This document shows, in pieces, positions 8,040-63,901 of a stretch of 64,000 bases of DNA. The position numbers and the translations under genes are program-made. Each line of letters starts with the position of its first letter. Position 1 is the stretch's first letter. Location of the stretch: NCBI GenBank assembly GCA_014843695.1, contig CM026403.1, forward strand, positions 42,374,572 through 42,438,571. Reading direction: 5' to 3'. The stretch is from Archivesica marissinica (lineage: Eukaryota; Mollusca; Bivalvia; Venerida; Vesicomyidae). The notes under the pieces were generated by a model that saw only the letters and a list, made by a program, of their open reading frames with translations, had not been told where the DNA came from and did no database searches.

Positions 8040-9130
8040 ATTTGTCAACAATGGATGGATCAGTGTAGTCCAGTGGTAGAGCCAATCTGTTAACAACAGA
8101 CAGATCTGTAGTCCAGTGGTAGAGCCAATCTGTCAACAACAGACATATCTGTAGTCCAGTGGTAGAGCCAATCTGTTAACAACAGACGGATCTGTAGTCC
8201 AGTGGTAGAGCCAATCTGTTAACAACAGACAGATCTGTAGTCCAGTGGTAGAGCCAATCTGTTAACAACAGACAGATCTGTAGTCCAGTGGTAGAGCCAA
8301 TCTGTTAACAACAGACATATCTGTAGTCCAGTGGTAGAGCCAATCTGTTAACAACAGACGGATCTGTAGTCCACTGGTAGAGCCAATCTGTCAACAACAG
8401 ATGGATCTGTAGTCCACTGGTAGAGCCAATCTGTTAACAGACAGATCTGTAGTCCAGTGGTAGAGCCAATCTGTTAACAACAGACATATCTGTAGTCCAG
8501 TGGTAAAGCCAATCTGTCAACAACAGACGGATCTGTAGTCCAGTGGTAGAGCCAATCTGTTAACAACAGACATATCTGTAGTCCAGTGATAGAGCCAATC
8601 TGTCAACAACAGACGGATCTGTAGTCCAGTGGTAGAGCCAATCTGTCAACAACAGACGGATCTGTAGTCCAGTGGTAGAGCCAATCTGTCAACAACAGAC
8701 ATATCTGTAGTCCAGTGGTAGAGCCAATCTGTCAACAACAGACATATCTGTAGTCCAGTGGTAGAGCCAATCTGTCAACAACAGACGGATCTGTAGTCCA
8801 GTGGTAGAGCCAATCTGTCAACAACAGACGGATCTGTAGTCCAGTGGTAGAGCCAATCTGTTAACAACAGATGGATCTGTAGTCCACTGGTAGAGCCAAT
8901 CTGTTAACAACAGATGGATCTGTAGTCCACTGGTAGAGCCAATCTGTTAACAACAGATGGATCTGTAGTCCACTGGTAGAGCCAATCTGTTAACAACAGA
9001 TGGATCTGTAGTCCAGTGGTAGAGCCAATCTGTTAACAACAGATGGATCTGTAGTCCACTGGTAGAGCCAATCTGTTAACAACAGATGGATCTGTAGTCC
9101 ACTGGTAGAGCCAATCTGTTAACAACAGAC
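8040..9130 (+). repeat. 43-bp minisatellite of SINE A-box origin, about 25 units
   Basis: The unit is GGATCTGTAGTCCAGTGGTA followed by GAGCCAATCTGTTAACAACA and GAC. The segment TCTGTAGTCCAGTGGT is the 5' start of the family A SINE that directly follows the array at 9131. Each unit therefore repeats TAGTCCAGTGG, which fits the RNA polymerase III A-box consensus TRGYNNARNNG. There is no B box in the unit. Confidence 0.9.
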
Positions 9131-30500: not shown

Positions 30501-31930
30501 ATGTATTTATAGAAGACAGGTGTGCTTTGGTTGTATAATGTGTGCTGGACAAACATGTATTTATAGAAGACAGGTGTGCTTTGGTTGTATAATGTCTGCT
30601 GGACAAACATGTATTTATAGAAGACAGGTGTGCTTTGGTTGTATAATGTGTGCTGGACAAACATGTATTTATTGAAGACAGGTGTGCTTTGGTTGTATAA
30701 TGTGTGCTGGACAAACATGTATTTATAGAAGACAGGTGTGCTTTGGTTGTATAATGTTTGCTGGACAAACCTGTGTCTATAGAAGACAAGTGTGCTTTGG
30801 TTGTATAATGTGTGCTCGACAAACATGTGTTTATAGAAGACAGATGGGCTTTGGTTGTATAATGTGTGCTGGACAAACATGTATTTATAGAAGACAGGTG
30901 TGCTTTGGTTGTATAATGTGTGCTGGACAAACCTGTGTCTATAGAAGACAAGTGTGCTTTGGTTGTATAATGGGTGCTCGACAAACATGTGTTTATAGAA
31001 GACATGTGTGCTTTGGTTGTATAATGTGTGCTCGACAAACATGTATTTATAGAAGACAGGTGTGCTTTGGTTGTATAATGGGTGATGGACAAACATGTGT
31101 TTATAGAAGACAGGTGTGCTTTGGTTGTATAATGGGTGCTGGACAAACATGTATTTATAGAAGACAGGTGGGCTTTGGTTGTATAATGGGTGCTGGACAA
31201 ACATGTGTCTATAGATGACAGGTGGGCTTTGGTTGTATAATGTGTGCTGGACAAACTTGTGTCTATAGAAGACAGGTGTGCCTTGGTAGTATAATGTGTG
31301 CTGGACAAACATGTATTTATAGAAGACAGGTGTGCTTTGGTTGTATAATGTGTGCTGGACAAACATGTATTTATAGAAGACAGGTTTGCATTGGTTGTAT
31401 AATGTGTGCTGGACAAACCTGTGTCTATAGAAGACAGGTGTGCCTTGGTTGTATAATGTGTGCTGGACAAACATGTATTTATAGAAGACAGGTGTGCTTT
31501 GGTTGTATAATGTGTGCTGGACAAACATGTATTTATAGAAGACAGGTGTGCTTTGGTTGTATAATGTCTGCTGGACAAACATGTATTTATAGAAGACAGG
31601 TGTGCTTTGGTTGTATAATGTGTGCTGGACAAACATGTATTTATAGAAGACAGGTGTGCTTTGGTTGTATAATGTGTGCTGGACAAACCTGTGTCTATAG
31701 AAGACAAGTGTGCTTTGGTTGTATAATGTGTGCTCGACAAACATGTGTTTATAGAAGACATGTGTGCTTTGGTTGTATAATGTGTGCTCGACAAACATGT
31801 ATTTATAGAAGACAGGTGTGCTTTGGTTGTATAATGGGTGCTGGACAAACATGTGTTTAAAGAAGACAGGTGTGCTTTGGTTGTATAATGGGTGCTCGAC
31901 AAACATGTATTTATAGAAGACAGGTGTGCT
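24572..31930. repeat. 54-bp minisatellite, about 7.4 kb, about 136 units
   Basis: The unit is TGTGTATATAGAAGACAGGT, GTGCTTTGGTTGTATAATGT, GTGCTGGACAAACA. It is 18 codons long and mostly free of stops, so frames of several hundred codons occur on both strands. I do not regard them as genes. Units vary at tgta/tgtc/tgtt/tatt and ttgt/tagt. Ordered blocks recur: a three-unit pattern (caggtgtg, cagatggg, caaatgtg) repeats three times at about 25100-25640 and again at about 27760-28260. A block of about 970 bp at 29990-30680 recurs from 30960. Units at 28900-29900 have many small indels. The left end is the N gap. Confidence 0.95.
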
Positions 31931-32042
31931 TTGATTGATTAGCATATGCTTTATATTTTCCATAATGTTTTTATTATCAAAGCACATACCTCTGCTTCAT
32001 TTTCTTTACAGCACCCATTGGCCGCTATATCTCCTTGACAAA

Positions 32043-36994: not shown

Positions 36995-38685
36995 TGGCTA
37001 ATTAAAGTCATGTTCTTGATCAGATATTCCATTGATATTATGATTTCTCTTTATGAAATGGAGCTACGAAGATATAAAAACGACATAAAAACGACATAAC
37101 GACTGTAATAGATACAATATGACTTTAAGTAAATAGTTCGATGTAATGCGATACATCTCTAATTTTCTATTACCTCCCTTTGCATGTAAAATCTGATTTA
37201 TCCCAACATGTAAATATGTTCTTTTAGTTGGAATCCTTTGTTTTTACTGTTGTTCCCTAACAAGATGTTGCGGTATGATACATGTGATTTTATCAAAATC
37301 TTGTTAATTAACTGATAGCATTGTTTTACAAACAAGTACCCATTGCATATACTGTAGGAGATCTGTCGAAATATAGTAATTTAATAATTATATGAAGCAA
37401 TAGTGGAATAAAATTGCTAGCATGTTGTGCAAAGGAAACAACGATACAAACAGAGGAAAACACTTAATAGGACCTATCTAAATTCAGGGAGTAGTCAGTG
37501 GCAGTGACTGACCGATGTATCTCAATAGAAAGTATGTATATGTTTGATTACGTTAGAACGGTTTAAGTAATATAGACTATGCATACCTTGTGCAAAACCC
37601 CAATTTGCACGAAATGTTTATTATTGTTATATATAAATAGTAATGTATTATATAAATACATTAAACTGTTTCTATATATGGCCAAATGTTTACCATGTAA
37701 TATATATATATTTGTATTATGCATAATCGTCTGCTATTATTTTCGCGCCTAAAATTATCAATCTCGCTTCGCGCGGGAAATGACTTAAGATGTTAGGCCT
37801 AATCTCAGTTTAGATACAGGCCGTGGTTGCAGGTGTCCAGTTATGTAATATAAAGGCACCGAACTGGTTTGATGGTGTAATATTAGATAACATAACAGAT
37901 GTTTAGGAATAACAGATGTTTTAGGAATTGTTATATCATATATACACTGATTCAATCATGTATATAAGAAATGGATTTTATTAACATAAATCAGACACAC
38001 TAGAGCCTAACTCCAGGAGCGAGAAAGGTCGTGATCTCAATCTAGTATATAGAACATATAAACTGTATTTATGATACTTAGATATTATGGACATTATAAG
38101 AAATATAACTTATAAAGATTTGTCGAATAATTAAATTGTTCAGCCATAGAAGAAACATAGAGTTTCGGCGAACCATATAGAAGGTGATTAAAAGTTAATC
38201 TAATCAGAAACAGTGATTAGATTATAGTGATATTGAGTAATGACGGATTAGAAAGATTGGATGTTAAATATACTGTGTAAGCGCATAGTCGGCTCACACA
38301 AATGGATTGTTAAATAAGCTTTTAATGATACGATGTATATATATATAGATCACTGATTATATATATATGGATATTTCTGATGCCAATTTAAACAAGATAT
38401 TATATAGAAGAAATGTAATACTGTGTTGAGTTATCATTAATACATATAATAACGAAGAAACCCCCTAGACAACTCCAGCGAGTCTACAATAGGATAGACC
38501 CTGGTAAGAGCCGTAGCAACCGAGACATATTATTACGAGAAGAAAAAGGAGAGTTTGCGACAACCTGACAACACGGCGTAGACAAGGCAGATACATAAAC
38601 TGAGATGTGCTGCCGCTGTCACTGAAAGAAACAGAGCATAATACCTCATTTGGTGGGCTTGTTTCACTTATTTACATATTAAAGA
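36995..38685. other. AT-rich region without recognised gene
   Basis: About 1.7 kb of AT-rich sequence, with TATATA runs at 37700 and 38336-38366. A small inverted pair CGCGCCTAAAATT...TTCGCGCGGGAA lies near 37743-37780. I find no supported coding sequence or RNA. Confidence 0.5.
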
Positions 38686-39111
38686 AGTAACTGAACGTAC
38701 CTATATACTGAAGAAACGCATCTACATAACGAAGTAACTGAACGTACCTATATAATGAAGAAACGTATCTACATAACGAAGTAACTGAACATACCTATAT
38801 AATGAAGAAACGTATCTACATAACGAAGTAACTGAACTTACCTATATAATGAAGAAACGTATCTACATAGCGAAGTAACTGAACTTACCTATATAATGAA
38901 GAAACGTATCTACATAACGAAGTAACTGAACATACCTATATAATGAAGAAACGTATCTACATAACGAAGTAACTAAACTTACCTATATAATGAAGAAACG
39001 TATCTACATAACGAAGTAACTGAACTTACCTATATAATGAAGAAACGTATCTACATAACGAAGTAACTAAACTTACCTATATAATGAAGAAACGTATCTA
39101 CATAGCGAAGT
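38686..39111. repeat. 47-bp minisatellite, about 9 units
   Basis: The unit is GAAGTAACTGAACTTACCTA, TATAATGAAGAAACGTATCT, ACATAAC. It ends directly against the tail of a family A SINE at 39112. Confidence 0.95.
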
Positions 39112-39289
39112 ACTGTGTGTGTTTTACGTTTATTTATCGTCGCTACCGGTTGCCCATATGAGCGACGCCTCCTGAAGAGATTAGTAATTTTAGATTTTGG
39201 AGGATAGTGCAATGATACAGACAGAGACGCATTACAGAGTCTCCTCTGGTTCTTTTACGTGCACGATGTAAAGCACCGACACGAGACCT
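39112..39289 (-). mobile_element. SINE family A, head lost
   Basis: It starts at the tail (TTTTACGTTTATTTATCGTC) and runs to CACCGACACGAGACCT, where it breaks off. The tRNA-like head is absent and is followed by an unrelated joint (GAAGTTGAAGTTTAACG) also seen at 39604. Confidence 0.8.
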
Positions 39290-42842: not shown

Positions 42843-43056
42843 GGGAATTGTGGCACTGATTGTGAACAGGAAAATGAATTTGTAATAACGAGAATGGGGT
42901 TTTTGGGGCTACCCTTTTTATGTTATTATATGTAGGGTCCAGTTTGTCTTCAAATCTTCTAGATACTGTTATTGACATTTCAGAAACCCATTCATATTAT
43001 TTATGGACAGCTGTAGCAAGTTATGTGTTTTTGCGTCATGCTAACACTTGATTTTA

Positions 43057-45380
43057 GTTCCTTGTTCCCGGACCTAGTCCAGTTCACAAACATCAATATC
43101 TAGCTCCTTGTCCCGGACCTAGTCCAGTTCATACACATCAATATCTAGCTCCTTGTCCCAGACCTAGTCCAGTTCACAAACATCAATATCTAGCTCCTTG
43201 TCCCGGACCTGGTCCAGTTCACAAACATCAATATCTAGCTCATTGTCAACATGGTCCAGTTCACAAACATCAATATCTAGCTCCTAGTCCAGTTCACAAA
43301 CATCAATATCTAGCTCCTTGTCCCGGACCTGGTCCAGTTCACAAACATCAATATCTAGCTCCTTGTCCCGGACCTAGTCCAGTTCACAAACATCAATATC
43401 TAGCTCATTGTCCCGAACCCAGTCCAGTGCATAAATATCAATATCTAGCTCATTGTCCCGGACCCAGTCCAGTTCATAAACATCAATATCTAGCTCCTTG
43501 TCCCGGATCCAGTCCAGTTCATAAACATCAATATCTAGCTCCTTGTCCCGGACCCAGTCCAGTTCATAAACATCAATATATAGCTCCTTGTCCCGGACCC
43601 AGTCCAGTTCACAAACATCAATATCTAGCTCCTTGTCCTCGGACCTAGTACAGTTCACAAACATCAATATCTAGCTCCTTGTCCCGGACCTAGTCCAGTT
43701 CACAAACATCAATATCTAGCGCATTGTCCAGGACCTAGTCCAGTTCACTAACATCACTGTCTAGCTCATTGTCCCGAACCCAGTCCAGTGCATAAATATC
43801 AATATCTAGCTCCTTGTCCCGGACCTAGTCCAGTTCACAAACATCAATATCTAGCGCATTGTCCAGGACCTAGTCCAGTTCACTAATATCACTGTCTAGC
43901 TCATTGTCCCGAACCCAGTCCAGTGCATAAATATCAATATCTAGCTCCTTGTCCCGGACCTAGTCCAGTTCACAAACATCAATATCTAGCTCCTTGTTCC
44001 GGGCCTAGTCCAGTTCATAAACATCAATATCTAACTCCTTGTCCCGGGCCTAGTCCAGTTCACAAACATCAATATCTAGCTCATTGTCCCGGACCTGGTC
44101 CAGTTCGCAACATCAATATCTAGCTCAATGTCCTCGGACCTAGTCCAGTTCACAAACATCAATATCTAGCGCATTGTCCAGGACCTAGTCCAGTTCACTA
44201 ACATCACTGTCTAGCTCATTGTCCCGAACCCAGTCCAGTGCATAAATATCAATATCTAGCTCATTGTCCCGGATCTATTCCAGTTCATAAACATCAATGT
44301 CTAGCTCATTGTCCCGGACCTAGTCCAGTTCACAAACATCAATATATAGCTCCTTGTCCCGGACCTGGTCCAGTTCACAAACATCAATATCTAGCTCCTT
44401 GTCCCGGACCTAGTCCAGTTCACAAACATCAATATCTAGCTCCTTGTCCTCGGACCTAGTACAGTTCACAAACATCAATATCTAGCTCCTTGTCCCGGAC
44501 CTAGTCCAGTTCACAAACATCAATATCTAGCGCATTGTCCAGGACCTAGTCCAGTTCACTAACATCACTGTCTAGCTCATTGTCCCGAACCCAGTCCATT
44601 CATAAACCTCAATATCTAGCTCCTTGTCCTCGGACCTAGTACAGTTCACAAACATCAATATCTAGCTCCTTGTCCCGGACCTAGTCCAGTTCACAAACAT
44701 CAATATCTAGCGCATTGTCCAGGACCTAGTCCAGTTCACTAACATCACTGTCTAGCTCAGCTCATTGTCCCGGACCCAGTCCAGTTCATAAACATCAATA
44801 TCTAGCTCCTTGTCCCGGACCCAGTCCAGTTCATAAACATCAATATCTAGCTCCTTGTCCCGGACCCAGTCCAGTTCATAAACATCAATATCTAGCTCCT
44901 TGTCCCGGACCCAGTCCAGTTCATAAACATCAATATCTAGCTCCTTGTCCTCGGACCTAGTACAGTTCACAAACATCAATATCTAGCTCCTTGTCCCGGA
45001 CCTAGTCCAGTTCACAAACATCAATATCTAGCGCATTGTCCAGGACCTAGTCCAGTTCACTAACATCACTGTCTAGCTCATTGTCCCGAACCCAGTCCAG
45101 TGCATAAATATCAATATCTAGCTCCTTGTCCCGGACCTAGTCCAGTTCACAAACATCAATATCTAGCGCATTGTCCAGGACCTAGTCCAGTTCACTAACA
45201 TCACTGTCTAGTTCATTGTCCCGAACCCAGTCCAGTGCATAAATATCAATATCTAGCTCCTTGTCCCGGACCTAGTCCAGTTCACAAACATCAATATCTA
45301 GCGCATTGTCCAGGACCTAGTCCAGTTCACTAACATCACTGTCTAGCTCATTGTCCCGAACCCAGTCCAGTGCATAAATA
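43057..45380 (-). repeat. Array C, copy 1: 45-bp repeat grown from the vWA2 exon end
   Basis: On the minus strand the unit is GATGTTTGTGAACTGGACTA, GGTCCGGGACAAGGAGCTAG, ATATT. The last bases of the vWA2 exon are GATGTTTGTGAACTGGACTA as well, and the array runs directly into that exon at 47248 (interrupted by the hAT element at 45381-47155). At 45 bp it is exactly 15 codons. In the exon's frame it reads ELD-stop-VRDKELDIDV, but units with TGG in place of TAG read through as ELDWVRDKELDIDVY, for example five consecutive units at 43430-43640. Subtypes (GCGCATTGTCC, TCACTGTCTAGC) recur in a three-unit order. Confidence 0.9.
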
Positions 45381-45387
45381 ATGCTGA

Positions 45388-46501
45388 GACTGTGTGTCCG
45401 AGTTTGGACTTACCGACAAGGTGGTGATGTGTGTGCATGACAATGCAAGGAATATAGAGTGTGCCGGCAATCTGTGTGAGGATTGGGAGGATTTGGGGTG
45501 CTTCGCCCATACCCTGCAATTGTGTGTGAAACCTGTGTTCGAGTTACCAAGTGTTTCTAAGGTAGTCTCTAAGTGTCGCAAACTTATTGGTCACTTTAAG
45601 CACTCCACGACAGTGTCCGCAGAGATGCGGAAACGCCAAGAGCTTCTCGACGAGCCACGGCACGAGTTGGTACAGGATGTACCTACTCGTTGGAATTCAA
45701 CGCAAATGATGCTGGAGCGTCTCACAGAGCAGCGTCGTGTTTTGACAGACCGCATGCTGGACACTCGTGTCACCAAGAAGATCGACACCAACCTTCTTCC
45801 AAAGAACCACGAGTGGGAGCTTATCAGTGAGCTATCCAGTGTGCTTGCTGATGTGACCGCCGTCACAACATATATGAGTGGGGAGAAGAGTGTGTCATGC
45901 TCCCAAGTGTATCCTATAGTGTGTGGACTTATGATGAACAGTCTCTGCCAGAACCCTGACGACTCTCATACAGTCAGTCGAGTGAAGGACGTGCTTCGCC
46001 AGCAGTTGGATCGTCGTTTCCGGCCAACGTTACTGGAGTCCGCTACCTCCATACCTATGGTTGCATCATTGCTCGACCCCCGCTACAAACGCTTGTTATT
46101 CGCTACCAAGGAACAGCGACGTGCATGTGAAGACCAGCTTGAGAGTCGTATGGACGAGATCCCCCTGCGACTTCCGGTGCACAACGAGTGTGACCAGATG
46201 CCATCGAAACGTAGGAAGTTGGACTTTATGGTGTTTGGTTCCCCGGAGAAAGAAGACTGTGATGAACTCAGGTGCTATATTGGTGAGAAATCTTATCCAG
46301 ATGCTGACTTGGTGGCGTCGTAACTCTCACAAGTATCCTAAGTTGGCAATCATCGCGAGAAAGCTTCTGTCGGTCCCAGCGACATCTGTGCCATCTGAAC
46401 GTGTGTTTTCGGCAGCAGGACTTCTTGTGAACAAACTCCGAAACCGCCTGTCTAGCGAAATCGTGGACCAGATAATCTTTCTGAATAAGAACAAGGTGTA
46501 A
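45388..46501 (+). pseudogene. hAT transposase (Ac/ZBED-like), truncated and frameshifted
   Basis: This is the C-terminal two thirds of an RNase-H-like hAT transposase, which cuts and pastes elements with these termini. Visible landmarks in order: VMCVHDNARNI (acidic catalytic-site region), CFAHTLQLCV (insertion-domain C..H), DVPTRWNSTQMMLERL, LDPRYKRLLF, and then, in a second frame, LTWWRRNSHKYPKLAIIARK and PSERVFSAAG, the hATC dimerisation motif. The frames are 1 base apart, with the switch near 46300-46310. The first frame ends with a stop at 46321-46323 and the second at 46499-46501. The N-terminal BED zinc finger and first catalytic aspartate are missing. An in-frame TGA lies at 45385-45387 at the array junction. 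It cannot make an active enzyme. Confidence 0.9.
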
Positions 46502-46691
46502 TTGAAAATGTGTGTTATGAAAGTTGTGAACTGTAACCCAGGATTTTACTAGGACTGAACTGAAATACGACGAAAATATTATGTATTTTGTGTACACAAT
46601 GAATTTTGCAGATGCTTTTATTCTTTTAAAGATTTCATCGTATAATTCTAATAAATATGCCTATATGTAGTTCAAAGTTGTTCGTTTTTAT

Positions 46692-46879
46692 ATTGGTGGA
46701 GGAAGACCCCGAGTGCCCCTCCGTGCAGTATTTCAGGCACCATGTAGAACCACCACAAGCAAGCTGGCTGGCTTCCTCACATGAAAATCCGACACCCCCA
46801 GTGGGATTCGAACATGCAGCAGTGATGGGCAAGTGATTTGGAGTCAACGACCGTAACAACTCGGCGACGGAGGCCCCAG
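46692..46879 (-). mobile_element. SINE family E, nested in the hAT element
   Basis: It is flanked by a 10-bp duplication, tcgtttttat, at 46682-46691 and 46880-46889. The minus-strand head reads GGGGCCTCCGTCGCCGAGTT, TTGACTCCAAATCAC (a loop that would read CCA, tryptophan) and ATGTTCGAATCCCACTGG (B box). It inserted into the hAT 3' untranslated region, so it is younger than the hAT insertion or was carried in with it. Confidence 0.8.
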
Positions 46880-47155
46880 TCGTTTTTATGGTTTAATGTC
46901 GCACCCATTTATACTTCTGTTCATTAAACAATAGAAACAACCCTTGATATAGACCTCACAAGTCGTAACCAAATCCATGTCAATATAAGTTAATTTCACG
47001 ACGTGTAAAATACACGCGTGTACCGGTGAACCGGTGAATAGGTCAGGTTTGAAAAAGTTTGGATTTGTTGTGAAATATTCATCGAATATTCGAATACTAT
47101 TCGAATACCACTTTCGAATATTCGAATACCATTTAGCTATTCGGTCCCATCCCTA

Positions 47156-47247
47156 ATAAATATCAATATCTAGCTCCTTGTCCCGGTCCTAGTCCAGTTC
47201 ACAAACATCAATATCTAGGTCATTGTCCCGGTCCTAGTCCAGTTCAC
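47156..47247 (-). repeat. Array C, copy 1, last units before the exon
   Basis: The two units between the hAT right border and the end of the vWA2 exon continue the 45-bp array (GGTCATTGTCCCGGTCCTAG variants). The matching units in copy 2 are at 59640-59773. Confidence 0.85.
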
Positions 47248-47814
47248 AAACATCAAAGTACAGTGAGCCAATCATTGAATACAACACATTGTAGTTGGTG
47301 TTGGCCTCATTTCCTAGTACATATACATGCGCAGGACTTGAAGCAATGTGCAGCAGTGACGTCATATTAATATCGGGTGGGACACCAATCGCCATAGTGA
47401 CAAGTGTAACACCAGTGTTCTTTAGATTTTCCGCTTCAGTCATTAATTCTTGCAGATTATCATTTGTGAATTTCCCATTCGTGAAAAGCAATGCTAGTTT
47501 TCGTTTGCCAGTCCTTGCACCCGTTGAAGAATGAAACGCAGATTGCTTCAAATGTCGTAGAGCGTTTGTGACATTTGCAGCAGACGAGTCATCCTGTGCA
47601 TGTGCACAATCATATCTGAGACAGTGGAGTACTCGTTGAAGTGGAAAATATGTTCAATATTAGCTGCAAACTGGGTACAGCTAATGTGCACGTCATCTGT
47701 TCCGACAGGAATCCTCTCCATTAAGACATCCAATCTGAGTGTAATACTTCACAAGAGTTATATCATTGGACGCATCGATCATCAGGGCAACGTCAGTGGT
47801 ACCATGGTAACAAT
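47248..47814 (-). pseudogene. vWA2 domain exon, copy 1, broken by two deletions
   Basis: This is the counterpart of the intact exon at 59774-60358. It starts after the acceptor gtgtttcag (47816-47815) with CYHGTTDVALMIDAS and ends ...SLYFDV at a possible weak donor, T|gtgaac. Relative to copy 2 it lacks 8 bp at 47733/47734 and 10 bp at 47588/47589. The total of 18 keeps the final frame but shifts the frame between the two points, giving a TGA at 47693-47695. A protein from this copy would stop about 40 residues into the domain. The deletions may be real or consensus errors. Both lie in stretches with short direct repeats. Confidence 0.8.
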
Positions 47815-49233
47815 CTGAAACACGAGAGCATTAAAACAACGTCACGATGGTACCATGGTAACAATCTGAAACATGAGATCATTAAATTACGTCACGATGG
47901 TACCATGGTAACAATCTGAAACAGAAGATCATTAAAACAACGTCACGATGGTACCATGGTAACAATCTGAAATATGAGATCATTAAAACAACTTCACGAT
48001 GGTACCATGGTAACAATCTGAAACACGAGATCATTAAAACAACGTCACGATGGTACCATGGTAACAATCTGAAACACGAGATCATTAAAACAACTTCACG
48101 ATGTTACCATGGTAACAATCTGAAACCGAAGATCATTAAAACAACGTCACGGTGGTACCATGGTAACAACATGCAACACGAGTTCACCAGAATAACGTCA
48201 CGGTGGTACGATAGTAACAATCTGAAACAGGAGATCGTCTGACCAACGTCAGTAGTACCATGGTAACAATCTGAAACATGAGACCATCAGAGCAACGTCA
48301 GTGGTACCATGGTAACAATCTGAAACATGAGACCATCAGAGCAACGTCAGTGGTACCATGGTAACAATCTGAAACATGAGACCATCAGTGCAACGTCAGT
48401 GGTACCATGGTAACACTCTGAAACATGAGACCATCAGTGCAACGTCAGTGGTACCATGGTAACAATCTGAAACATGAGACCATCAGTGCAACGTCAGTGG
48501 TACCATGGTAACAATCTGAAACAGGAGACCATCAGTGCAACGTCAGTGGTACCATGGTAACAATCTGAAACAGGAGACCATCAGTGCAACGTCAGTGGTA
48601 CCATGGTAACAATCTGAAACAGGAGACCATCAGTGCAACGTCAGTGGTACCATGGTAACAATCTGAAACAGGAGACCATCAGTGCAACGTCAGTGGTACC
48701 ATGGTAACAATCTGAAACAGGAGACCATCAGTGCAACGTCAGTGGTACCATGGTAACAATCTGAAACAGGAGACCATCAGTGCAACGTCAGTGGTACCAT
48801 GGTAACAATCTGAAACAGGAGACCATCAGTGCAACGTCAGTGGTACCATGGTAACAATCTGAAACAGGAGACCATCAGTGCAACGTCAGTGGTACCATGG
48901 TAACAATCTGAAACAGGAGACCATCAGTGCAACGTCAGTGGTACCATGGTAACAATCTGAAACAGGAGACCATCAGTGCAACGTCAGTGGTACCATGGTA
49001 ACAATCTGAAACATGAGACCATCAGTGCTACTTCAGTGGTACCATGGTAACAATCTGAAACATGAGACCATCAGTGCAACGTCAGTGGTACCATGGTAAC
49101 AATCTGAAACATGAGACCATCAGTGCAACTTCAGTGGTACCATGGTAACAATCTGAAACATGAGACCATCAGTGCAACTTCAGTGATACCATTGTAACAA
49201 TCTCAAACACGTGATCGTCAGAGCAACGTCAGT
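47788..49233 (-). repeat. Array A, copy 1: repeated 3' splice site plus exon start
   Basis: On the minus strand the 49-bp unit is ATTGTTACCATGGTACCACT, GACGTTGCACTGATGGTC, TCCTGTTTCAG. The first 38 nt equal the beginning of the vWA2 exon (36 of 38 identical), and the last 11 nt are a pyrimidine-rich tract with AG, as directly before the real exon. About 28 units are present. Units next to the exon are a 51-bp subtype (ATCGTGACGTTGTTTTAATG), those farther away the 49-bp subtype. Each unit is a potential acceptor. Use of an upstream unit would shift the frame (49 bp) or meet TAA (51-bp type). Confidence 0.9.
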
Positions 49234-49252: not shown

Positions 49253-49418
49253 TTTCGTCGATTACTCGTGACATTAGAATTTCCTGAATTGACTTACGTC
49301 CATTATGCGTATACGCGTGACATTAGAATGTCCACCTTTGACGTTCGTCCATTACGCATGGTACCATGGTAACAATTACGCGTGACTTTAGAATTTCCTC
49401 ACTTGACTTTCGTCCAAA
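49253..49418. repeat. About 60-bp degenerate repeat, 3 units
   Basis: CGTGACATTAGAATTTCCTG, CGTGACATTAGAATGTCCAC and CGTGACTTTAGAATTTCCTC, each followed by TTGACNTNCGTCCA. The third is preceded by an array A fragment (CATGGTACCATGGTAACAAT). Also present at 61456-61619. Confidence 0.8.
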
Positions 49419-49953: not shown

Positions 49954-50156
49954 TAAATGTGTAAAGTAAGTATACAAGACTATTCTTCCAGTGTATGTGG
50001 TATTAGCACTGATTACATATATAATACAACATGGGTTACGGTTGGTTTAAAATTGCGTAATGGAAATAGTTATCAAGGCATTCTTTCATTATGTCTAAGC
50101 ATATATAGAATCACATTTGTCCAGTGCATCTGACATTGTAAATGTTTTGCGTGAAT

Positions 50157-52800
50157 CGTAGTACATACCTGGACATCGTAGTACATACCTGTACATCGTA
50201 GTACATACCTGGGCATCGTAGTACATACCTGGACATCGTAGTACATACCTGTACATCGTAGTACATACCTGGGCATCGTATGGGCATCGTAGTACATACC
50301 TGGACATCGTAGTACATACCTGGACATCGTAGTACATACCTGGGCATCGTAGTACATACCTGGACATCGTAGTACATACCTGGACATCGTAGTACATACC
50401 TGGGCATCGTAGTACATACCTGTACATCGTAGTACATACCTGGACATCTGGACATCGTAGTACATACCTGTACATCGTAGTACATACCTGGACATCTGGA
50501 CATCGTAGTACATACCTGGACATCTGGACATCGTAGTACATACCTACCTGGACATCGTAGTACATACCTGGACATCGTAGTACACCTGGACATCGTAGTA
50601 CATACCTGGACATCTGGACATCGTAGTACATACCTGTACATCGTAGTACATACCTGGACATCGTAGTACATACCTGGCATCGTAGTACATACCTGGGCAT
50701 CGTAGTACATACCTGGACATCGTAGTACATACCTGGACATCGTAGTACATACCTGGACATCTGGACATCGTAGTACATACCTGGACATCGTAGTACATAC
50801 CTGGGCATCGTAGTACATACCTGTACATCGTAGTACATACCTGTACATCGTAGTACATACCTGGACATCTGGACATCGTAGTACATACCTGTACATCGTA
50901 GTACATACCTGTACATCGTAGTACATACCTGGACATCTGGACATCGTAGTACATACCTACCTGGACATCGTAGTACATACCTGGACATCGTAGTACATAC
51001 CTGGACATCGTAGTACATACCTGGACATCTGGACATCGTAGTACATACCTGCACATCGTAGTACATACCTGGACATCGTAGTACATACCTGGACATCGTA
51101 GTACATACCTGGACATCTGGACATCGTAGTACATACCTGGACATCTGGACATCGTAGTACATACCTACCTGGACATCGTAGTACATACCTGGACATCTGG
51201 ACATCGTAGTACATACCTACCTGGACATCGTAGTACATACCTGTACATCGTAGTACATACCTGGACATCGTAGTACATACCTGGACATCTGGACATCGTA
51301 GTACATACCTGGACATCGTAGTACATACCTGGACATCGTAGTACATACCTGTACATCGTAGTACATACCTGGACATCGTAGTACATACCTGGACATCTGG
51401 ATATCGTAGTACATACCTGGACATCGTAGTACATACCTGGACATCGTAGTACATACCTGGACATCGTAATACATACCTGGACATCGTAGTACATACCTAC
51501 CTGGACATCGTAGTACATACCTGGACATCGTAGTACATACCTGGACATCGTAGTACATACATGGGCATCGTAGTACATACCTGTACATCGTAGTACATAC
51601 CTGTACATCGTAGTACATACCTGGACATCGTAGTACATACCTGGGCATCGTAGTACATACCTGTACATCGTAGTACATACCTGGACATCTGGACATCGTA
51701 GTACATACCTACCTGGACATCGTAGTACATACCTGGACATCGTAGTACATACCTGGACATCGTAGTACATACCTGGGCATCGTAGTACATACCTGGACAT
51801 CGTAGTACATACCTGGGCATCGTAGTACATACATGTACATCGTAGTACATACCTGTACATCGTAGTACATACCTGGACATCGTAGTACATACCTGGCATC
51901 GTAGTACATACCTGTACATCGTAGTACATACCTGGACATCGTAGTACATACCTGTACATCGTAGTACATACCTGGACTCGTAGTACATACCTGGACATCG
52001 TAGTACATACCTGTACATCGTAGTACATACCTGGGCATCGTAGTACATACCTGGGCATCGTAATACATACCTGTACATGGTAGTACATACCTGGACATCG
52101 TAGTACATACCTGGACATCGTAGTACATACCTGGGCATCGTAGTACATACCTGGGCATCGTAGTACATACCTGTACATCGTAGTACATACCTGGACATCT
52201 GGACATCGTAGTACATACCTGGGCATCGTAGTACATACCTGGACATCGTAGTACATACCTGGGCATCGTAGTACATACCTGGGCATCGTAGTACATACCT
52301 GGGCATCGTAGTACATACCTGGACATCGTAGTACATACCTGTCATCGTAGTACATACCTGGACATCTGGACATCGTAGTACATACCTGGGCATCGTAGTA
52401 CATACCTGGACATCTGGACATCGTAGTACAACTGTACATCGTAGTACATACCTGGACATCTGGACATCGTAGTACATACCTGGCAACAACCCCAGTACAT
52501 ACCTGGGCATCGTAGTACATACCTGGGCATCGTAGTACATACCTGGACATCGTAGTACATACCTGTACATCGTAGTACATACCTGGACATCTGGACATCG
52601 TAGTACATACCTGGGCATCGTAGTACATACCTGGACATCGTAGTACATACCTGTACATCGTAGTACATACCTGGACATCTGGACATCGTAGTACATACCT
52701 GGACATCGTAGTACATACCTGTACATCGTAGTACATACCTGGACATCTGGACATCGTAGTACATACCTGGACGTCGTAATGTATATCTGGACGTCGTAAT
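50157..52800 (-). repeat. Array B, copy 1: repeated 5' splice-site-like unit
   Basis: On the minus strand the 20-bp unit is ATGTCCAGGTATGTACTACG, giving CAG|gtatgt in every unit. There are about 125 units, with variants gtacag and gcccag and an 8-10-bp insert (ATGTCCAG doubled). It lies just inside the intron after vWA1, whose real donor is CCTG|gtatgc at 52875/52874. The first degenerate units begin about 40 bp downstream (ACGTCCAGGTATATATAACG). Repetitive frames such as CTTMSRYVLRCPGMYYDVQV are translations of the unit. Confidence 0.9.
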
Positions 52801-52874
52801 GTATACATGGACGTCGTTATATATACCTGGACGTTCGTTTATGGAACTTAGAATCATACAATTGAAATGCATAC

Positions 52875-53438
52875 CAGGACACGCGTCCATTACTTGTGAT
52901 TTTAGAATAACGTTGACGGCATCTGTGCTGCTGACAGGAAACACGTTCTTCCAATGACTGGCAATGTGTAGCAGCTCTTCGTGCCTCACCTGGCTACCTA
53001 CGCCAATTGAAATCACTGTAACGCCACCTTGTTTCAAATAGTCTGCCTGCTGTATTGTATCAACGGGATCTGATAACAGGCCGTCACTCAGAACGATCAC
53101 GTATTTATCCGCATCCAGACGGGCACCTTTGGTAGCTGTCAATACATCGTCTCGTATGATTTGGAGACCTTTTCCTGTAAAGCTCGGTCCATTTTCATAC
53201 AGTACATTATCTACTGCGGACATAACAGACGTATGTGTAGCATACTTGTTCAGATAGAATTGTACCGCTGTATTTAGGGAAACAGTTACTAAGGCGATTT
53301 GGAAATCGTTTGGTCCGAGTGTAAGTTTTGAAACAAAGTCGTTGACATATTGTTTCTGTGTTTCAAATTGTTCCGGAAGTTGACTGTAAGACGCATCCAA
53401 TAGAAACACTACTTCCGCACCAGCTGGCTTGCACATAT
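52875..53438 (-). CDS. vWA1 domain exon, copy 1
   Basis: One exon codes for a complete von Willebrand factor A domain, an extracellular adhesion or matrix module. It has 564 nt, acceptor accttctag before 53438, donor CCTG|gtatgc at 52875, phase 1 at both ends. Residues: Cys2, the MIDAS motif DASYS at 14-18 in FLLDASYSQ, Thr87 in SFTGKG, Asp118 in VLSDG, and Cys186 near the end to pair with Cys2. The metal-binding set is complete. Upstream on the same strand are EGF exons 54873-54982 and 56433-56546, and downstream is vWA2. The order suggests a secreted mosaic matrix protein of matrilin or collagen VI type. The exact family cannot be told from these exons. Open sequence beyond both splice sites is intron. 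Confidence 0.85.
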
Positions 53439-53531: not shown

Positions 53532-53716
53532 GCGCCGTTTTGCTATTTATTCAGTATTTATGGATATCCAAATAAATCGATTTTTGGATATTCATAATTC
53601 GATTTTTGGATATACATAAATCGATTTTGATTATTGGATATCCATAATTCAATTTTGGGATAACCATAATTCTATTTTTGGATATCCATAAATGCTGAAT
53701 AAATAGCAAAACGGCG
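53532..53716. mobile_element. Foldback element with GGATATCC words
   Basis: The left end CGCCGTTTTGCTATTTATTC continues AGTATTTATGGATATCC. The right end gives the inverted copy, TGGATATCCATAAATGCTGA then ATAAATAGCAAAACGGCG. The arms are about 40 bp with one mismatch. The interior is a string of TGGATATCCATAATTCGATT-like words, continuing past the right arm to about 53810. It lies in the intron about 95 bp before the vWA1 acceptor. Confidence 0.75.
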
Positions 53717-53989
53717 AGCCTGGAATTATGGATATCCAAAAATCGAAATATGGATATCCAAAATTACAATTATGGATTTCCAAAACAAGATTATTGGATA
53801 TCCATAAATAGCTTAGTGAAATGGGGACTGGTGAATTGGGAACTTTTTTAAAATTATTTATATATACAGTGATTTAAGCAAACCGGCAAAGGTATAATTC
53901 ATAGCATCTGTTAATTTAGTTGTGTACAGATTATACATGCAATATGCAAAGTAGAAATACAGATTGGAAATGGAATGTTATACAGGGTT

Positions 53990-54872: not shown

Positions 54873-54982
54873 CTGTCTCGCAGTGAGCGCCGGGAACCCT
54901 TCACTACACATGCACGTGTATCCTGTTGCATTTTCCTGACACGTTGCCCCATTATGACACGGCGCACTGGTACATTGGATTT
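54873..54982 (-). CDS. EGF-like domain exon with one base missing
   Basis: Acceptor ag at 54984-54983, donor ACAG|gtcagt at 54873/54872. Reading in phase 1 gives IQCTSAPCHNGATCQENATG, then YTCMCSEGF. That is five of the six EGF cysteines with the usual GYTCMCSEGF end. The exon is 110 nt, one short of a multiple of three. After GGGTTCCC the frame must move by one base for the rest to read PGAHCET with the sixth cysteine. The missing base lies in a C run, so a homopolymer consensus error is likely. A real frameshift is possible. Corrected, the exon would be phase 1-1 like its neighbours. Confidence 0.75.
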
Positions 54983-56432: not shown

Positions 56433-56546
56433 CTGTCAGTTCACAGTTATGTCCCTTGTACCCTTGCCAACATTTGCATGTGTATGTATTTCCACCCGAC
56501 TCATTACAGCTGCCGAAAATGCACGGGAAGCTTGAACACGAACCGT
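56433..56546 (-). CDS. EGF-like domain exon
   Basis: Acceptor tttgcag before 56546, donor ACAG|gtgata at 56433/56432; 114 nt, phase 1-1. The translation is GSCSSFPCIFGSCNESGGNT, YTCKCWQGYKGHNCELT. It has six cysteines in EGF spacing, with the typical YTCKCWQGYKGHNC end and no calcium-binding D-x-D/E start. It is a typical shuffled extracellular module. The next exon of the same gene toward the 3' end is EGF 54873-54982. Exons further 5' would lie beyond gap 2 or outside the window. Confidence 0.85.
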
Positions 56547-56999
56547 CTGCAAACAGTTTTCAAGGTCGACATTATATACATGTATATAACAATATTGATT
56601 ATCAATACGATTCTATTTAACGAGACAAGACATTTGAACAACTAAATCAACATACAAGGAGGCAATCAACAAAGCATGAATTGTCACATTGCAACAGGCG
56701 CAAACGATAACTGGATTAGAAAGTATATAAAGATGGTTTTTTTCTTTGCATTTTTTAAATTTAAGTTTATTTATCGTCGCTACCCAGTACCGTAGCCAGG
56801 CGCAAATTTCAACCGAGGCAATCTAGGAGGTCAGGAGGCATGCTCCCCCTATTGGGGTATAGAAGCGATTTCCTGCGTTTTCTGATTTAATGAGTTTAGA
56901 CGTATAATTATGTACAGTCAACATTTTATACAGCAAAGGGATATTTTTACATTTTATTTATTTAATTTTTCATTTTATTTTATTTTTTGCTTTGGAAAT
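56547..56999. other. Intronic sequence, no recognised feature
   Basis: AT-rich, with a piece near 56760-56830 (AAGTTTATTTATCGTCGCTA) resembling a family A SINE tail without a body. Confidence 0.4.
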
Positions 57000-58875: not shown

Positions 58876-59773
58876 ATATCTAGCTCATTGTCCCGGACCC
58901 AGTCCAGTTCATAAACATCAATATCTAGCTCCTTGTCCCGGATCCAGTCCAGTTCATAAACATCAATATCTAGCTCCTTGTCCCGGACCCAGTCCAGTTC
59001 ATAAACATCAATATATAGCTCCTTGTCCCGGACCCAGTCCAGTTCACAAACATCAATATCTAGCTCCTTGTCCTCGGACCTAGTACAGTTCACAAACATC
59101 AATATCTAGCTCCTTGTCCCGGACCTAGTCCAGTTCACAAACATCAATATCTAGCGCATTGTCCAGGACCTAGTCCAGTTCACTAACATCACTGTCTAGC
59201 TCATTGTCCCGAACCCAGTCCAGTGCATAAATATCAATATCTAGCTCCTTGTCCCGGACCTAGTCCAGTTCACAAACATCAATATCTAGCGCATTGTCCA
59301 GGACCTAGTCCAGTTCACTAACATCACTGTCTAGCTCATTGTCCCGAACCCAGTCCAGTGCATAAATATCAATATCTAGCTCCTTGTCCCGGACCTAGTC
59401 CAGTTCACAAACATCAATATCTAGCGCATTGTCCAGGACCTTGTCCAGTTCACTAACATCACTGTCTAGCTCATTGTCCCGAACCCAGTCCAGTGCATAA
59501 ATATCAATATCTAGCTCCTTGTCCCGGACCTAGTCCAGTTCACAAACATCAATATCTAGCGCATTGTCCAGGACCTTGTCCAGTTCACTAACATCACTGT
59601 CTAGCTCATTGTCCCGACCGAACCCAGTCCAGTGCATAACTATCAATATCTAGCTCCTTGTCCTTGGACCTAGTCCGGTTCACAAACATCAATATCTAGG
59701 TCATTGTCCCGGTCCTCGTCCAGTTCACAAACATCAATATCTAGGTCATTGTCCCGGTCCTAGTCCAGTTCAC
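58876..59773 (-). repeat. Array C, copy 2
   Basis: The 45-bp unit as in copy 1, starting mid-array at the gap and running into the vWA2 exon end. The first units match 43440-43870 almost base for base, including the read-through TGG units. At about 59632 the unit reads GTGCATAACTATCAATATC without the hAT, giving the empty site. Confidence 0.9.
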
Positions 59774-60358
59774 AAACATCAAAGTACAGTGAGCCAATCA
59801 TTGAATACAACACATTGTAGTTGGTGTTGGCCTCATTTCCTAGTACATATACATGCGCAGGACTTGAAGCAATGTGCAGCAGTGACGTCATATTAATATC
59901 GGGTGGGACACCAATCGCCATAGTGACAAGTGTAACACCAGTGTTCTTTAGATTTTCCGCTTCAGTCATTAATTCCTGCAGATTATCATTTGTGAATTTC
60001 CCATTCGTGAAAAGCAATGCTAGTTTTCGTTTGCCAGTCCTTGCACCCGTTGAAGAATGAAACGCAGATTGCTTCAAATGTCGTAGAGCGTTTGTGACAT
60101 TTGCAGCAGACGAGGCATCGTGCGTCATCCTGTGCATGTGCACAATCATATCTGAGACAGTGGAGTACTCGTTGAAGTGGAAAATATGTTCAATATTAGC
60201 TGCAAACTGGGTACAGCTAATGTGCACGTCATCTGTTCCGACAGGAATCCTCTCCATTAAGACATCCAACACATCGATCTGAGTGTAATACTTCACAAGA
60301 GTTATATCAGTGGACGCATCGATCATCAGGGCAACGTCAGTGGTACCATGGTAACAAT
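59774..60358 (-). CDS. vWA2 domain exon, copy 2 (intact)
   Basis: A single exon of 585 nt codes for a von Willebrand factor A domain. The acceptor is gtgtttcag before 60358. The proposed donor T|gtgaac at 59774/59773 is weak but makes the exon phase 1-1. Otherwise translation ends at TAG a few codons later (59760-59762). The first residues are CYHGTTDVALMIDAS. The MIDAS position reads DASTD (13-17), and the later aspartate is replaced by Asn118 in LLFTNGK, so two metal-site residues are lost and ligand binding through a metal is unlikely. The domain ends HVYVLGNEANTNYNVLYSMI, then GSLYFDVC. Cysteines at the two ends match vWA1. The exon's first 38 nt are amplified in array A and its last bases in array C. 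Confidence 0.85.
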
Positions 60359-61440
60359 CTGAAACACGAGATCATTAAAACAACGTCACGATGGTACCAT
60401 GGTAACAATCTGAAACATGAGATCATTAAAACAACGTCACGATGGTACCATGGTAACAATCTGAAACAGAAGATCATTAAAACAACGTCATGATGGTACC
60501 AGGGTAACAATCTGATACAGAAGATCATTAAAACAACGTCACGATGGTACCATGGTAACAATCTGAAACATGAGACCATTAAAACAACTTCACGATGGTA
60601 CCATGGTAACAATCTGAAACACGAGATCATTAAAACAACGTCACGATGGTACCATGGTAACAATCTGAAACATGAGATCATTAAAACAACTTCACGATGT
60701 TACCATGGTAACAATCTGAAACCGAAGATCATTAAAACAACGTCACGGTGGTACCATGGTAACAACCTGCAACACGAGTTCACCAGAATAACGTCACGGT
60801 GGTACGATAGTAACAATCTGAAACAGGAGATCGTCTGACCAACGTCAGTGGTACCATGGTAACAATCTGAAACATGAGACCATCAGAGCAACGTCAGTGG
60901 TACCATGGTAACAATCTGAAACATGAGACCATCAGAGCAACGTCAGTGGTACCATGGTAACAATCCGAAACATGAGACCATCAGAGCAACGTCAGTGGTA
61001 CCATGCTAACAATCTGAAACATGAGACCATCAGTGCAACGTCAGTGGTACCATGGTAACAATCTGAAACAGGAGACCATCAGTGCAACGTCAGTGGTACC
61101 ATGGTAACAATCTGAAACATGAAACCATCAGTGCAACGTCAGTGGTACCATGGTAACAATCTGAAACAGGAGACCATCAGTGCAACGTCAGTGGTACCAT
61201 GGTAACAATCTGAAACATGAGACCATCAGTGCAACGTCAGTGGTACCATGGTAACAATCTGAAACATGAGACCATCAGTGCAACGTCAGTGGTACCATGG
61301 TAACAATCTGAAACAGGAGACCATCAGTGCAACGTCAGTGGTACCATGGTAACAATCTGAAACATGAGACCATCAGTGCAACTTCAGTGGTACCATTGTA
61401 ACAATCTCAAACACGTGATCGTCAGAGCAACGTCAGTCGA
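60332..61440 (-). repeat. Array A, copy 2: repeated 3' splice site plus exon start
   Basis: About 22 units with the same two subtypes as copy 1: 51-bp units close to the exon (to about 60770) and 49-bp units beyond. Every complete unit has TGTTTCAG|ATTGTTACCATGG on the minus strand. It is about 330 bp shorter than copy 1, mainly in the 49-bp block. Confidence 0.9.
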
Positions 61441-61455
61441 AACTTGCCTCACCTG

Positions 61456-61868
61456 ATTTCGTCGATTACTCGTGACATTAGAATTTCCTGAATTGACTTA
61501 CGTCCATTATGCGTATACGCGTGAAATTAGAATGTCCACTATTGACGTTCGTCCATTACGCATGGTACCATGGTAACAATTACGCGTGACTTTAGAATTT
61601 CCTCACTTGACTTTCGTCCAAAATTAATTTGTATAAGCTATGTAATATAGCTTTTGACCGACATATAATGAAACAATCACGTTTGTTTTAAACCTTATTT
61701 ATTTTAAAACGAATGCGAAACAAGTTCTAATAACTTATATTAATAACTCTCGTTGGCGCGGATGAACGCGTAAACGTGGTCATTCGTATGGGGGGGGACC
61801 GGAGTACCCGGAGAAAACCCACCTGTCCGATCTGGCGACCACCGTACCATCTCACACATTGCATTGAT
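61456..61868 (-). mobile_element. 60-bp repeat (3 units) and SINE family D, copy 2
   Basis: 61456-61619 matches 49253-49418, and 61693-61868 matches the head-truncated family D SINE at 49476-49680. The G homopolymer (61790-61797) is shorter here. Confidence 0.75.
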
Positions 61869-62171: not shown

Positions 62172-62376
62172 TAAATGTGTAAAGTAAGTATACAAGACTA
62201 TTCTTCCAGTGTATGGGGTATTAGCACTGATTACATATATAATACAACATGGGTTACGGTTGGTTTAAAATTGCGTAATGGAAATAGTTATCAAGGCATT
62301 CTTTCATTATGTCTAAGCATATATAGAATCACATTTGTCCAGTGCATCTGACGTTGTAAATGTTTTGCGTGAATCG

Positions 62377-63265
62377 TAGTACATACCTGGACATCGTAGG
62401 TACATACCTTACATCGTAGTACATACCTGGACATCGTAGGTACATACCTTACATCGTAGTACATACCTGGACATCGTAGTACATACCTGGACATCGTAGG
62501 TACATACCTTACATCGTAGTACATACCGGACACGTAGGTACATACCTTACATCGTAGTACATACCTGGACATCGTAGTACATACCTTACATCGTAGTACA
62601 TACCTGGACATCGTAGTACATACCTTACATCGTAGTACATACCTGGACATCGTAGTACATACCTACATCGTAGTACTACCTGGACATCGTAGTACATACC
62701 TGGACATCGTAGGTACATACCTTACTCGTGTACATACCTGGACATCGTAGTACATACTTACATCGTAGTACATACCTGTACATGTAGTACATACCTGGAC
62801 ATCGTAGTACATACCTGGACATCGTAGTACATACTGTACATCGTAGGTACATACCTGTACATCGTAGTACATACCTGGACATCGTAGTACATACCTGTAC
62901 ATCGTAGTACATACCTGTACATCGTAGTAATACCTGGACATCGTAGTAATACCTGACTCGTAGTACATACCTGTACATGTAGTATATACCTGGACATCGT
63001 AGTACATACCTGGACATCGTAGTACATACCTGTACATCGTAGTACATACCTGGACATCGTAGTATATACCTGGACATCGTAGTACATACCTGGACATCGT
63101 AGTACATACCTGGACATCGTAGTATATACCTGGACATCGTAGTACATACCTGGACATCGTAGTACATACCTGTACATCGTAGTACATACCTGTACATCGT
63201 AGTATATACCTGGACATCGTAGTACATGCATGGATATCGTAGTACATACCTGGACGTCGTAATGT
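62377..63265 (-). repeat. Array B, copy 2: repeated 5' splice-site-like unit
   Basis: The 20-bp unit is as in copy 1 (CCAGGTATGTACTACGATGT on the minus strand), but there are only about 42 units. Between 62380 and 62990 many units have single-base indels (GTAGGTACATACC, TACCTTACATC, CATGTAGTAC), unlike copy 1. Confidence 0.9.
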
Positions 63266-63337
63266 ATACATGGACGTCGTTATATATACCTGGACGTTCG
63301 TTTATGGAACTTAGAATCATACAAATGAAATGCATAC

Positions 63338-63901
63338 CAGGACACGCGTCCATTACTTGTGATTTTAGAATAACGTTGACGGCATCTGTGCTGCTGACAG
63401 GAAACACGTTCTTCCAATGACTGGCAATGTGTAGCAGCTCTTCGTGCCTCACCTGGCTACCTACGCCAATTGAAATCACTGTAACGCCACCTTGTTTCAA
63501 ATAGTCTGCCTGCTGTATTGTATCAACGGGATCTGATGACAGGCCGTCACTCAGAACGATCACGTATTTATCCGCATCCAGACGGGCACCTTTGGTAGCT
63601 GTCAATACATCGTCTCGTATGATTTGGAGACCTTTTCCTGTAAAGCTCGGTCCATTTGCATACAGTACATTATCTACTGCGGACATAACAGACGTATGTG
63701 TAGCATACGCGTTCAGATAGAATTGTACCGCTGTATTTAGGGAAACAGTTACTAAGGCGATTTGGAAATCGTTTGGTCCGAGTGTAAGTTTTGAAACAAA
63801 GTCGTTGACATATTGTTTCTGTGTTTCAAATTGTTCCGGAAGTTGACTGTAAGACGCATCCAATAGAAACACTACTTCCGCACCAGCTGGCTTGCACATA
63901 T
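63338..63901 (-). CDS. vWA1 domain exon, copy 2
   Basis: 564 nt with the same splice sites and phases as 52875-53438. Four bases differ and all change the protein: Lys64 to Ala (two bases), Glu81 to Ala, Leu121 to Ser. MIDAS residues DASYS, Thr87 and Asp118 are kept. Its 5' neighbours (EGF exons) would lie beyond the window end. The next exon downstream is the intact vWA2 at 59774-60358, across an intron holding arrays B and A. Confidence 0.85.

What the first reader, a model, noticed from the sequence alone, without database searches (positions are those of the whole stretch)
47788..49233. A minisatellite made of repeated 3' splice sites plus exon start
Each ~49-51-bp unit joins a polypyrimidine-AG acceptor (TGTTTCAG) to the first ~38 nt of the adjoining vWA2 exon. 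The real exon start is simply the last unit. About 28 near-identical acceptors therefore precede one exon, and about 22 do so in the second copy. An upstream unit used as acceptor would give a frameshift or early stop, so the array could reduce correct splicing in a length-dependent way, or the spliceosome must choose the most distal AG. I know of no described family of this kind. Its functional meaning is inference.
Basis: partly seen in the sequence, partly recalled or inferred. Interest (0 to 1): 0.88.

Follow-up and report, generated by a model that had tools for sequence, protein, structure and literature searches.

The report
Repeated splice signals flanking one exon
In a clam-like gene the start of one exon, with its splice signal, has been copied head to tail over twenty times, and the signal at the other end of the intron and the stop codon have multiplied too; it is a real and unusual natural test of how cells pick one splice site among many look-alikes, but the arrays are probably tolerated repeats and not a dedicated device.

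Summary
On the minus strand 28 tandem 49-51-bp units (copy A; 21 in copy B) precede the last coding exon (vWA2) of a bivalve gene; each joins an acceptor, mostly GTTTCAG, to the exon's first ~38 nt. A Mercenaria 'collagen alpha-4(VI) chain-like' protein (57% identity) runs without a gap through the predicted junction VMDACPD|CYHGTTDVAL and ends where this gene stops, so the last AG is the ancestral acceptor and the exon is older than the array.

All 49 upstream acceptor units would end the protein early.

Against a special mechanism: arrays fill 52% of the window, their closeness to exons is not above chance (35 of 138 shifts), and donor-side arrays of this kind are known (ABCA7, IFI6). Copy A's vWA2 frame is broken. 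Verdict: exon-edge minisatellites, probably tolerated; the acceptor and stop forms look new. RNA untested.

The parts
47815..49233 (-). acceptor array, copy A: 28 upstream units of 49-51 bp, each an acceptor (mostly GTTTCAG) + first ~38 nt of the vWA2 exon
47234..47814 (-). vWA2, last coding exon, copy A (true acceptor at its high end; stop TAG at low end); lacks 8 bp and 10 bp present in copy B, frame broken
60359..61437 (-). acceptor array, copy B: 21 upstream units
59760..60358 (-). vWA2, last coding exon, copy B, intact, ends FDVCELD-stop
52875..53438 (-). vWA1 exon, copy A (acceptor CCTTCTAG|ATATG, donor GTGTCCTG|GTATGC)
63338..63901 (-). vWA1 exon, copy B
50155..52834 (-). donor-like array, copy A: 20-bp unit GTATGTACTACGATGTCCAG, main TRF row 50155-52747 with 127.2 copies, an overlapping weaker row reaching 52834; 111 exact CAG|GTATGT
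62373..63295 (-). donor-like array, copy B: 47.0 copies; 26 exact CAG|GTATGT
47158..47256 (-). stop-codon array, copy A, exon-proximal 2.2 units of 45 bp (unit spans DVCELD-TAG and following 3' sequence)
43055..45378 (-). stop-codon array, copy A, continuation (51.8 copies) beyond an inserted element; in part of the units the TAG is changed
58876..59782 (-). stop-codon array, copy B, about 20 units seen, cut by the assembly gap
45379..47157 (+). hAT-like element remnant inserted in copy A's stop-codon array; no such insert in the units seen in copy B
   Evidence: (ORF 45388-46323), (borders; ATAAATA on both sides); the hAT label is recalled, that ORF had no Pfam match
54885..54977 (-). EGF2 exon (core), same gene; by eye its frame slips near the end
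56440..56547 (-). EGF1 exon (core), same gene
   Evidence: tblastn E 1.2e-6; Pfam EGF 20.4 bits, just under the curated cut-off of 21.5

Best explanation
A duplication spanning the intron/exon border of the last coding exon (vWA2) seeded a minisatellite that grew outward into the intron by ordinary tandem-repeat expansion. The same probably happened at the donor of the preceding exon, and happened across the stop codon. Each array is tolerated because the exon-proximal signal is kept: the first donor, the last acceptor and the first stop. The cell most likely picks those by exon definition. Leakage to acceptor decoys would give a small set of secreted proteins cut off just after vWA1. Shown by sequence: unit make-up, position, true junction and stop (by orthology with one annotated Mercenaria protein), decoy products, copy-number differences between A and B. 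Inferred: the donor seed, exon-proximal choice, tolerance, absence of a dedicated function.
For: Units translate to the exon's own start: tblastn with the Mercenaria protein matches many single units, for instance DCYHGTTDVALMV against DCYHSTSDVAIIV (these unit matches are weak, E 0.02 to 6), so the exon is ancestral. Junction and C-terminus agree with Mercenaria. A and B differ in copy number for the acceptor (28 v 21 upstream units) and donor (127 v 47) arrays; units align in the same order with blocks gained or lost, and one 49-bp unit occurs 10 times identically in A against 3 in B. Arrays of TRF score 100 or more cover 33,584 of 64,000 bases (33 merged arrays), and exon-flank contact is not above chance: 3 of 8 flanks of copy A's four exons have an array within 50 nt, a count reached in 35 of 138 shifts that put at most 120 coding bases in arrays, and in 2,087 of 2,556 shifts without that condition. 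The 32 non-overlapping arrays are not enriched for donor-like units overall (KS p 0.21).
Against: Three successive signals of one gene are affected, which the shift test only loosely evaluates (one window, one gene). By a recalled human-like matrix the true donor CTG|GTATGC scores 2.37 bits and the decoy CAG|GTATGT 5.65. Of the distal 49-bp units, 17 of 20 in A and 11 of 12 in B have two CTGA(C/T) branch-like motifs upstream of their AG, at -28 and -17; the true site has only one YTNAY motif, at -17. So site strength alone would favour decoys, and tolerance is not obvious. Copy A's vWA2 frame is broken, so relaxed constraint could explain the arrays there. The 491-nt RNA fold of the array is no better than shuffles (z +1.09), so no structure that hides decoys is indicated. 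The donor array does not touch the exon: about 40 nt (A) and 42 nt (B) lie between, and the unit resembles the true donor without being identical.
Confidence: 0.68

Rival explanations
1. Splicing rheostat: the donor and acceptor arrays compete with the true sites, so array length sets the ratio of full-length (vWA1+vWA2) to vWA1-only protein.
For: All 49 upstream acceptor units (28 in A, 21 in B) give early stops, with few distinct tails (13 of 28 in A share one tail exactly). Decoy donors are many and strong. ABCA7's donor VNTR shows a length effect on exon skipping (PMC5954066, abstract and passages).
Against: No RNA evidence. In ABCA7 the length effect was on skipping of the next exon; retention of a repeat unit was not affected by length. 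Copy A cannot make intact vWA2 anyway.
Confidence: 0.15
2. Arrays mark a decaying gene copy: selection on correct splicing has lapsed and the arrays grew freely. (Compatible with the main reading for copy A, so the odds overlap.)
For: Copy A lacks 8 bp and 10 bp in vWA2, has an element inserted in the 3' array and an EGF2 frame slip read by eye.
Against: Copy B carries all three arrays with vWA1 and vWA2 intact and in frame; its EGF exons lie outside the window and were not seen. The vWA1 stretches are 99.0% identical.
Confidence: 0.25
3. Assembly artefact: array lengths, deletions or the A/B duplication come from collapsed or mis-joined long reads.
For: A 1,000-N gap separates A and B; B begins at the gap inside its 45-bp array; several units of B's donor array are missing a few bases.
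Against: The arrays occur in both copies with ordered, diverged units, which collapse does not create. Only lengths and the A/B duplication are in doubt.
Confidence: 0.1
4. Dispersed satellite that landed at this exon by chance.
For: Little: a lone 18-nt core copy lies at 49358-49375 and, in the other copy, at 61562-61579.
Against: Units encode the ortholog's exon start; in the window the core lies only in the two arrays and at that one place and its copy.
Confidence: 0.03

Closest known systems
ABCA7 intron 18 VNTR (human; PMC5954066, abstract and passages)
   Same: Minisatellite directly flanking an exon, whose 25-bp unit includes that exon's splice donor; unit retention and a length effect on splicing are described.
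   Different: Donor side only; here the acceptor side with exon-start coding sequence, plus a donor-like array on the same intron and a stop-codon array. No RNA data here.
IFI6 / 6-16 (G1P3) minisatellite, Turri et al. 1995 (title seen in reference lists; paper not held; gene name partly recalled)
   Different: Donor sites in the title; no acceptor or stop array known to me.
[quoted passage not shown]
   Same: A VNTR across an exon border, reported there as affecting alternative splicing.
   Different: The passage does not say which signal is repeated or how many copies.
Tandem repeats near intron ends in plants and green algae (PMC3887541, abstract and passages)
   Same: Tandem repeats significantly more frequent near intron-exon junctions.
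   Different: A statistical enrichment of motifs of 1-50 bp; the passages make no claim that units copy a splice site with exon sequence.

Membership tests
Exon-edge splice-site minisatellite (ABCA7/IFI6 kind) | Tandem units immediately flank an exon and include its splice signal (acceptor side) | tested here: met
Exon-edge splice-site minisatellite (ABCA7/IFI6 kind) | The same on the donor side | tested here: inconclusive
   the exon's GTGTCCTG|GTATGC resembles, and is not identical to, the unit's ATGTCCAG|GTATGT; about 40 nt (A) and 42 nt (B) lie between exon end and array edge
Exon-edge splice-site minisatellite (ABCA7/IFI6 kind) | Copy number varies between alleles | tested here: inconclusive
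   A and B differ, but whether they are alleles or paralogues is unknown
Exon-edge splice-site minisatellite (ABCA7/IFI6 kind) | Repeat sites used, or splicing altered, in RNA | not testable with these tools
   no RNA data at hand
Mercenaria-type collagen alpha-4(VI)-like EGF-EGF-vWA-vWA gene | Collinear similarity to the Mercenaria protein, including junction and C-terminus | tested here: met
   (vWA1, vWA2, EGF1 and EGF2 matched; the protein's first ~120 residues were not found in the window)
Dispersed satellite | Many copies unrelated to this exon | tested here: inconclusive
   in the window one lone 18-nt copy and its duplicate; genome search unanswered

The most novel reading that the evidence does not exclude
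A gene whose donor, acceptor and stop have each been multiplied into arrays works as a copy-number-tuned splice switch: the arrays hold U1 and the 3' splice-site machinery, and their lengths set how much full-length vWA1-vWA2 protein is made against a vWA1-only secreted form. Most of the 49-bp decoys give one and the same short tail, so the output would depend on how many decoys there are more than on which is used.
Probability: 0.1. Interest if true: 0.8.

Novelty: new variant of a known kind. Interest (0 to 1): 0.52.

Why it matters
In copy A one intron carries over a hundred strong donor decoys at one end (111 exact CAG|GTATGT) and 27 acceptor decoys with AG kept at the other; copy B has fewer of each. 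It is a natural experiment on splice-site choice: nearly identical sites differ mainly in distance from the exon, so the contributions of site strength, branch motif and exon definition could be read from cDNA of one locus. It also shows that exon-edge minisatellites can form at acceptors and stop codons, not only at donors.

Tried and rejected
Seeding preference for splice sites: a shift test gave 35 of 138 conditional shifts reaching the observed count at 50 nt (3 of 8 flanks), 90 of 138 at 30 nt (2 of 8) and 63 of 138 at 100 nt (3 of 8) (EGF exon borders were approximate); no excess. General enrichment of donor-like units among the window's arrays: KS p 0.21 over 32 arrays, with mononucleotide shuffles; only the 20-bp arrays (A and B) and the 47-bp array at 38680-39112 are below 0.05. 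RNA structure that hides decoys: a 10-unit stretch gave z +1.09 (88 of 100 shuffles as good); a 152-nt stretch with the last two upstream units and the true site gave z -1.87 (10 of 200 shuffles as good); not convincing. A coding role for the 45-bp array: judged unlikely, because the Mercenaria protein ends at the same residue as this gene's stop. An array at the vWA1 acceptor: the 22-bp arrays at 53556-53811 lie over 100 nt from the exon and, by eye, do not copy its start. Literature: ten searches; no title or abstract start that I saw describes an acceptor-plus-exon-start array. One search showed 25 of 106 papers, and most subscription papers are not held, so this is no proof of absence. The donor matrix is recalled and human-like, not from this organism.

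Full report
What is there. The window is dense in minisatellites: 33 merged arrays of TRF score 100 or more cover 33,584 of 64,000 bases. On the minus strand lies a gene with two EGF exons and two vWA exons (EGF1 is just under Pfam's cut-off). The closest of three protein hits is Mercenaria mercenaria 'collagen alpha-4(VI) chain-like' (582 aa), 57% identical over the whole 387-residue query. The region from vWA2 to vWA1 occurs twice, A (about 43-53.5 kb) and B (about 58.9-64 kb). The three compared non-array stretches are 96.3, 96.5 and 99.0% identical, and an assembly gap of 1,000 N lies between the copies. They may be two haplotypes or a tandem duplication; I could not decide.

The acceptor array. 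Before the vWA2 exon, copy A has 28 and copy B 21 upstream units. Each ends in an acceptor (mostly GTTTCAG) and starts with the exon's first ~38 nt (ATTGTTACCATGGTACC...). AG is kept in 27 of 28 and 20 of 21. The units code for the exon's own start: tblastn with the Mercenaria protein finds single units as DCYHGTTDVALMV against DCYHSTSDVAIIV (weak E-values as expected for 13-23 residues). The predicted junction, VMDACPD|CYHGTTDVAL, aligns without a gap to VMDECPDCYHSTSDVAI. So the last AG is the ancestral acceptor and the array derives from the exon, not the reverse. Only the Mercenaria protein was available, not its DNA, so the intron position there is not checked.

The same intron opens with a 20-bp array (GTATGTACTACGATGTCCAG; 127 copies in A, 47 in B) that begins about 40 nt after the exon. 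Its unit resembles the exon's donor GTGTCCTG|GTATGC; that this donor was the seed is an inference. Copy A holds 118 (A/T)G|GTAWRT sites, 111 of them exact CAG|GTATGT; copy B 39 and 26. At the other end, a 45-bp array repeats the last codons and the stop (DVCELD-TAG) plus following sequence. That this is the true end of the protein is supported by the Mercenaria protein ending FDVCEMD at the same place.

What decoys would do. Joined to vWA1, all 28 upstream units of A and all 21 of B give an early stop (these counts include the one AT unit of A and the one GG unit of B). One tail is shared exactly by 13 of 28 units in A and by 8 of 21 in B (one of these lacks AG); the other 49-bp units mostly differ by a residue, and the 51-bp units give a shorter tail. 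Because the stop lies in the last coding exon, such transcripts should not meet the usual junction-dependent decay unless an intron follows in the 3' UTR, which is unknown; a vWA1-only protein is then the expected product. This is an inference from general knowledge. Of the donor decoys, 9 of 118 (A) and 9 of 39 (B) would keep the full vWA2 frame when joined to copy B's intact vWA2 exon; in 99 of 118 and 14 of 39 the extension itself holds a stop. With a recalled human-like matrix the true donor (2.37 bits) is weaker than the decoy (5.65); 128 of 140 positive-scoring sites in A's intron and 47 of 63 in B's exceed it, 5 of each lying outside the donor array. Of the distal 49-bp units, 17 of 20 (A) and 11 of 12 (B) have two branch-like CTGA(C/T) motifs before their AG, the true site one YTNAY motif; pyrimidine content is similar (0.58-0.74) at all sites, the true one being 0.74 in A and 0.68 in B. 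So strength alone does not explain correct splicing; position relative to the exon must matter, if splicing is correct at all. No RNA evidence was available.

How it arose. Unit-level alignment of A and B shows shared order with gained or lost blocks, and one 49-bp unit ten times identical in A but three times in B. This is ordinary minisatellite growth. Copy A's stop array is split by a hAT-like remnant that is not seen in the units of copy B. A shift test gives no sign that arrays prefer exon edges (35 of 138 at 50 nt). With half the window in arrays, three arrays at eight exon flanks is unremarkable; what is unusual is that the units carry the signals themselves.

Doubts. Copy A's vWA2 lacks 8 bp and 10 bp present in B and, by eye, the EGF2 exon's frame slips near its end, so copy A may be a dying copy, a null allele or badly assembled. 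Copy B is intact for vWA1 and vWA2; its EGF exons are outside the window.

Known or new. Donor-side exon-edge minisatellites are known: ABCA7 (PMC5954066, abstract and passages) and IFI6/6-16 (title only). FAM20C has a junction-spanning VNTR (PMC5941971, one passage). In ABCA7, length raised skipping of the next exon, while retention of a repeat unit did not change with length, which counsels caution about a simple decoy-competition model. Ten searches (showing 25 of 106) gave no acceptor-plus-exon-start array in what I saw. I file this as a new variant of a known kind.

Noticed in passing
window 38680-39112: A 47-bp array (9.2 copies) whose minus-strand unit holds a near-perfect donor TAG|GTAAGT (shuffle p 0.007); no exon was identified beside it.
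   Followed up: partly
window 49358-49375 and 61562-61579: A lone exact 18-nt copy of the acceptor-array core (TTGTTACCATGGTACCAT) in the intron about 125 bp beyond the array, in different surroundings, in both copies.
   Followed up: no
window 47234-47814 against 59760-60358: Copy A's vWA2 exon lacks 8 bp and 10 bp present in copy B; together 18 bp, so the frame is regained after a stretch with stops.
   Followed up: partly
window 45379-47157: Remnant of a hAT-like element (label recalled) inside the stop-codon array of copy A: a terminal-inverted-repeat-like end is seen at the right border only, and ATAAATA stands at both borders.
   Followed up: partly
window 8828-9096: ARAGORN calls three tRNA-Val (aac) genes, 86 bp apart, inside a 43-bp tandem array; probably artefacts of the repeat.
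   Followed up: no
window 24572-31937: A very large 54-bp minisatellite (about 138 copies, 7.4 kb) that starts at an assembly gap.
   Followed up: no
window 50155-52834: The 20-bp donor unit starts with GT and ends with AG, so any run of whole units is a GT...AG stretch; reading from vWA1 stays open for 177 codons into the intron in copy A.
   Followed up: no
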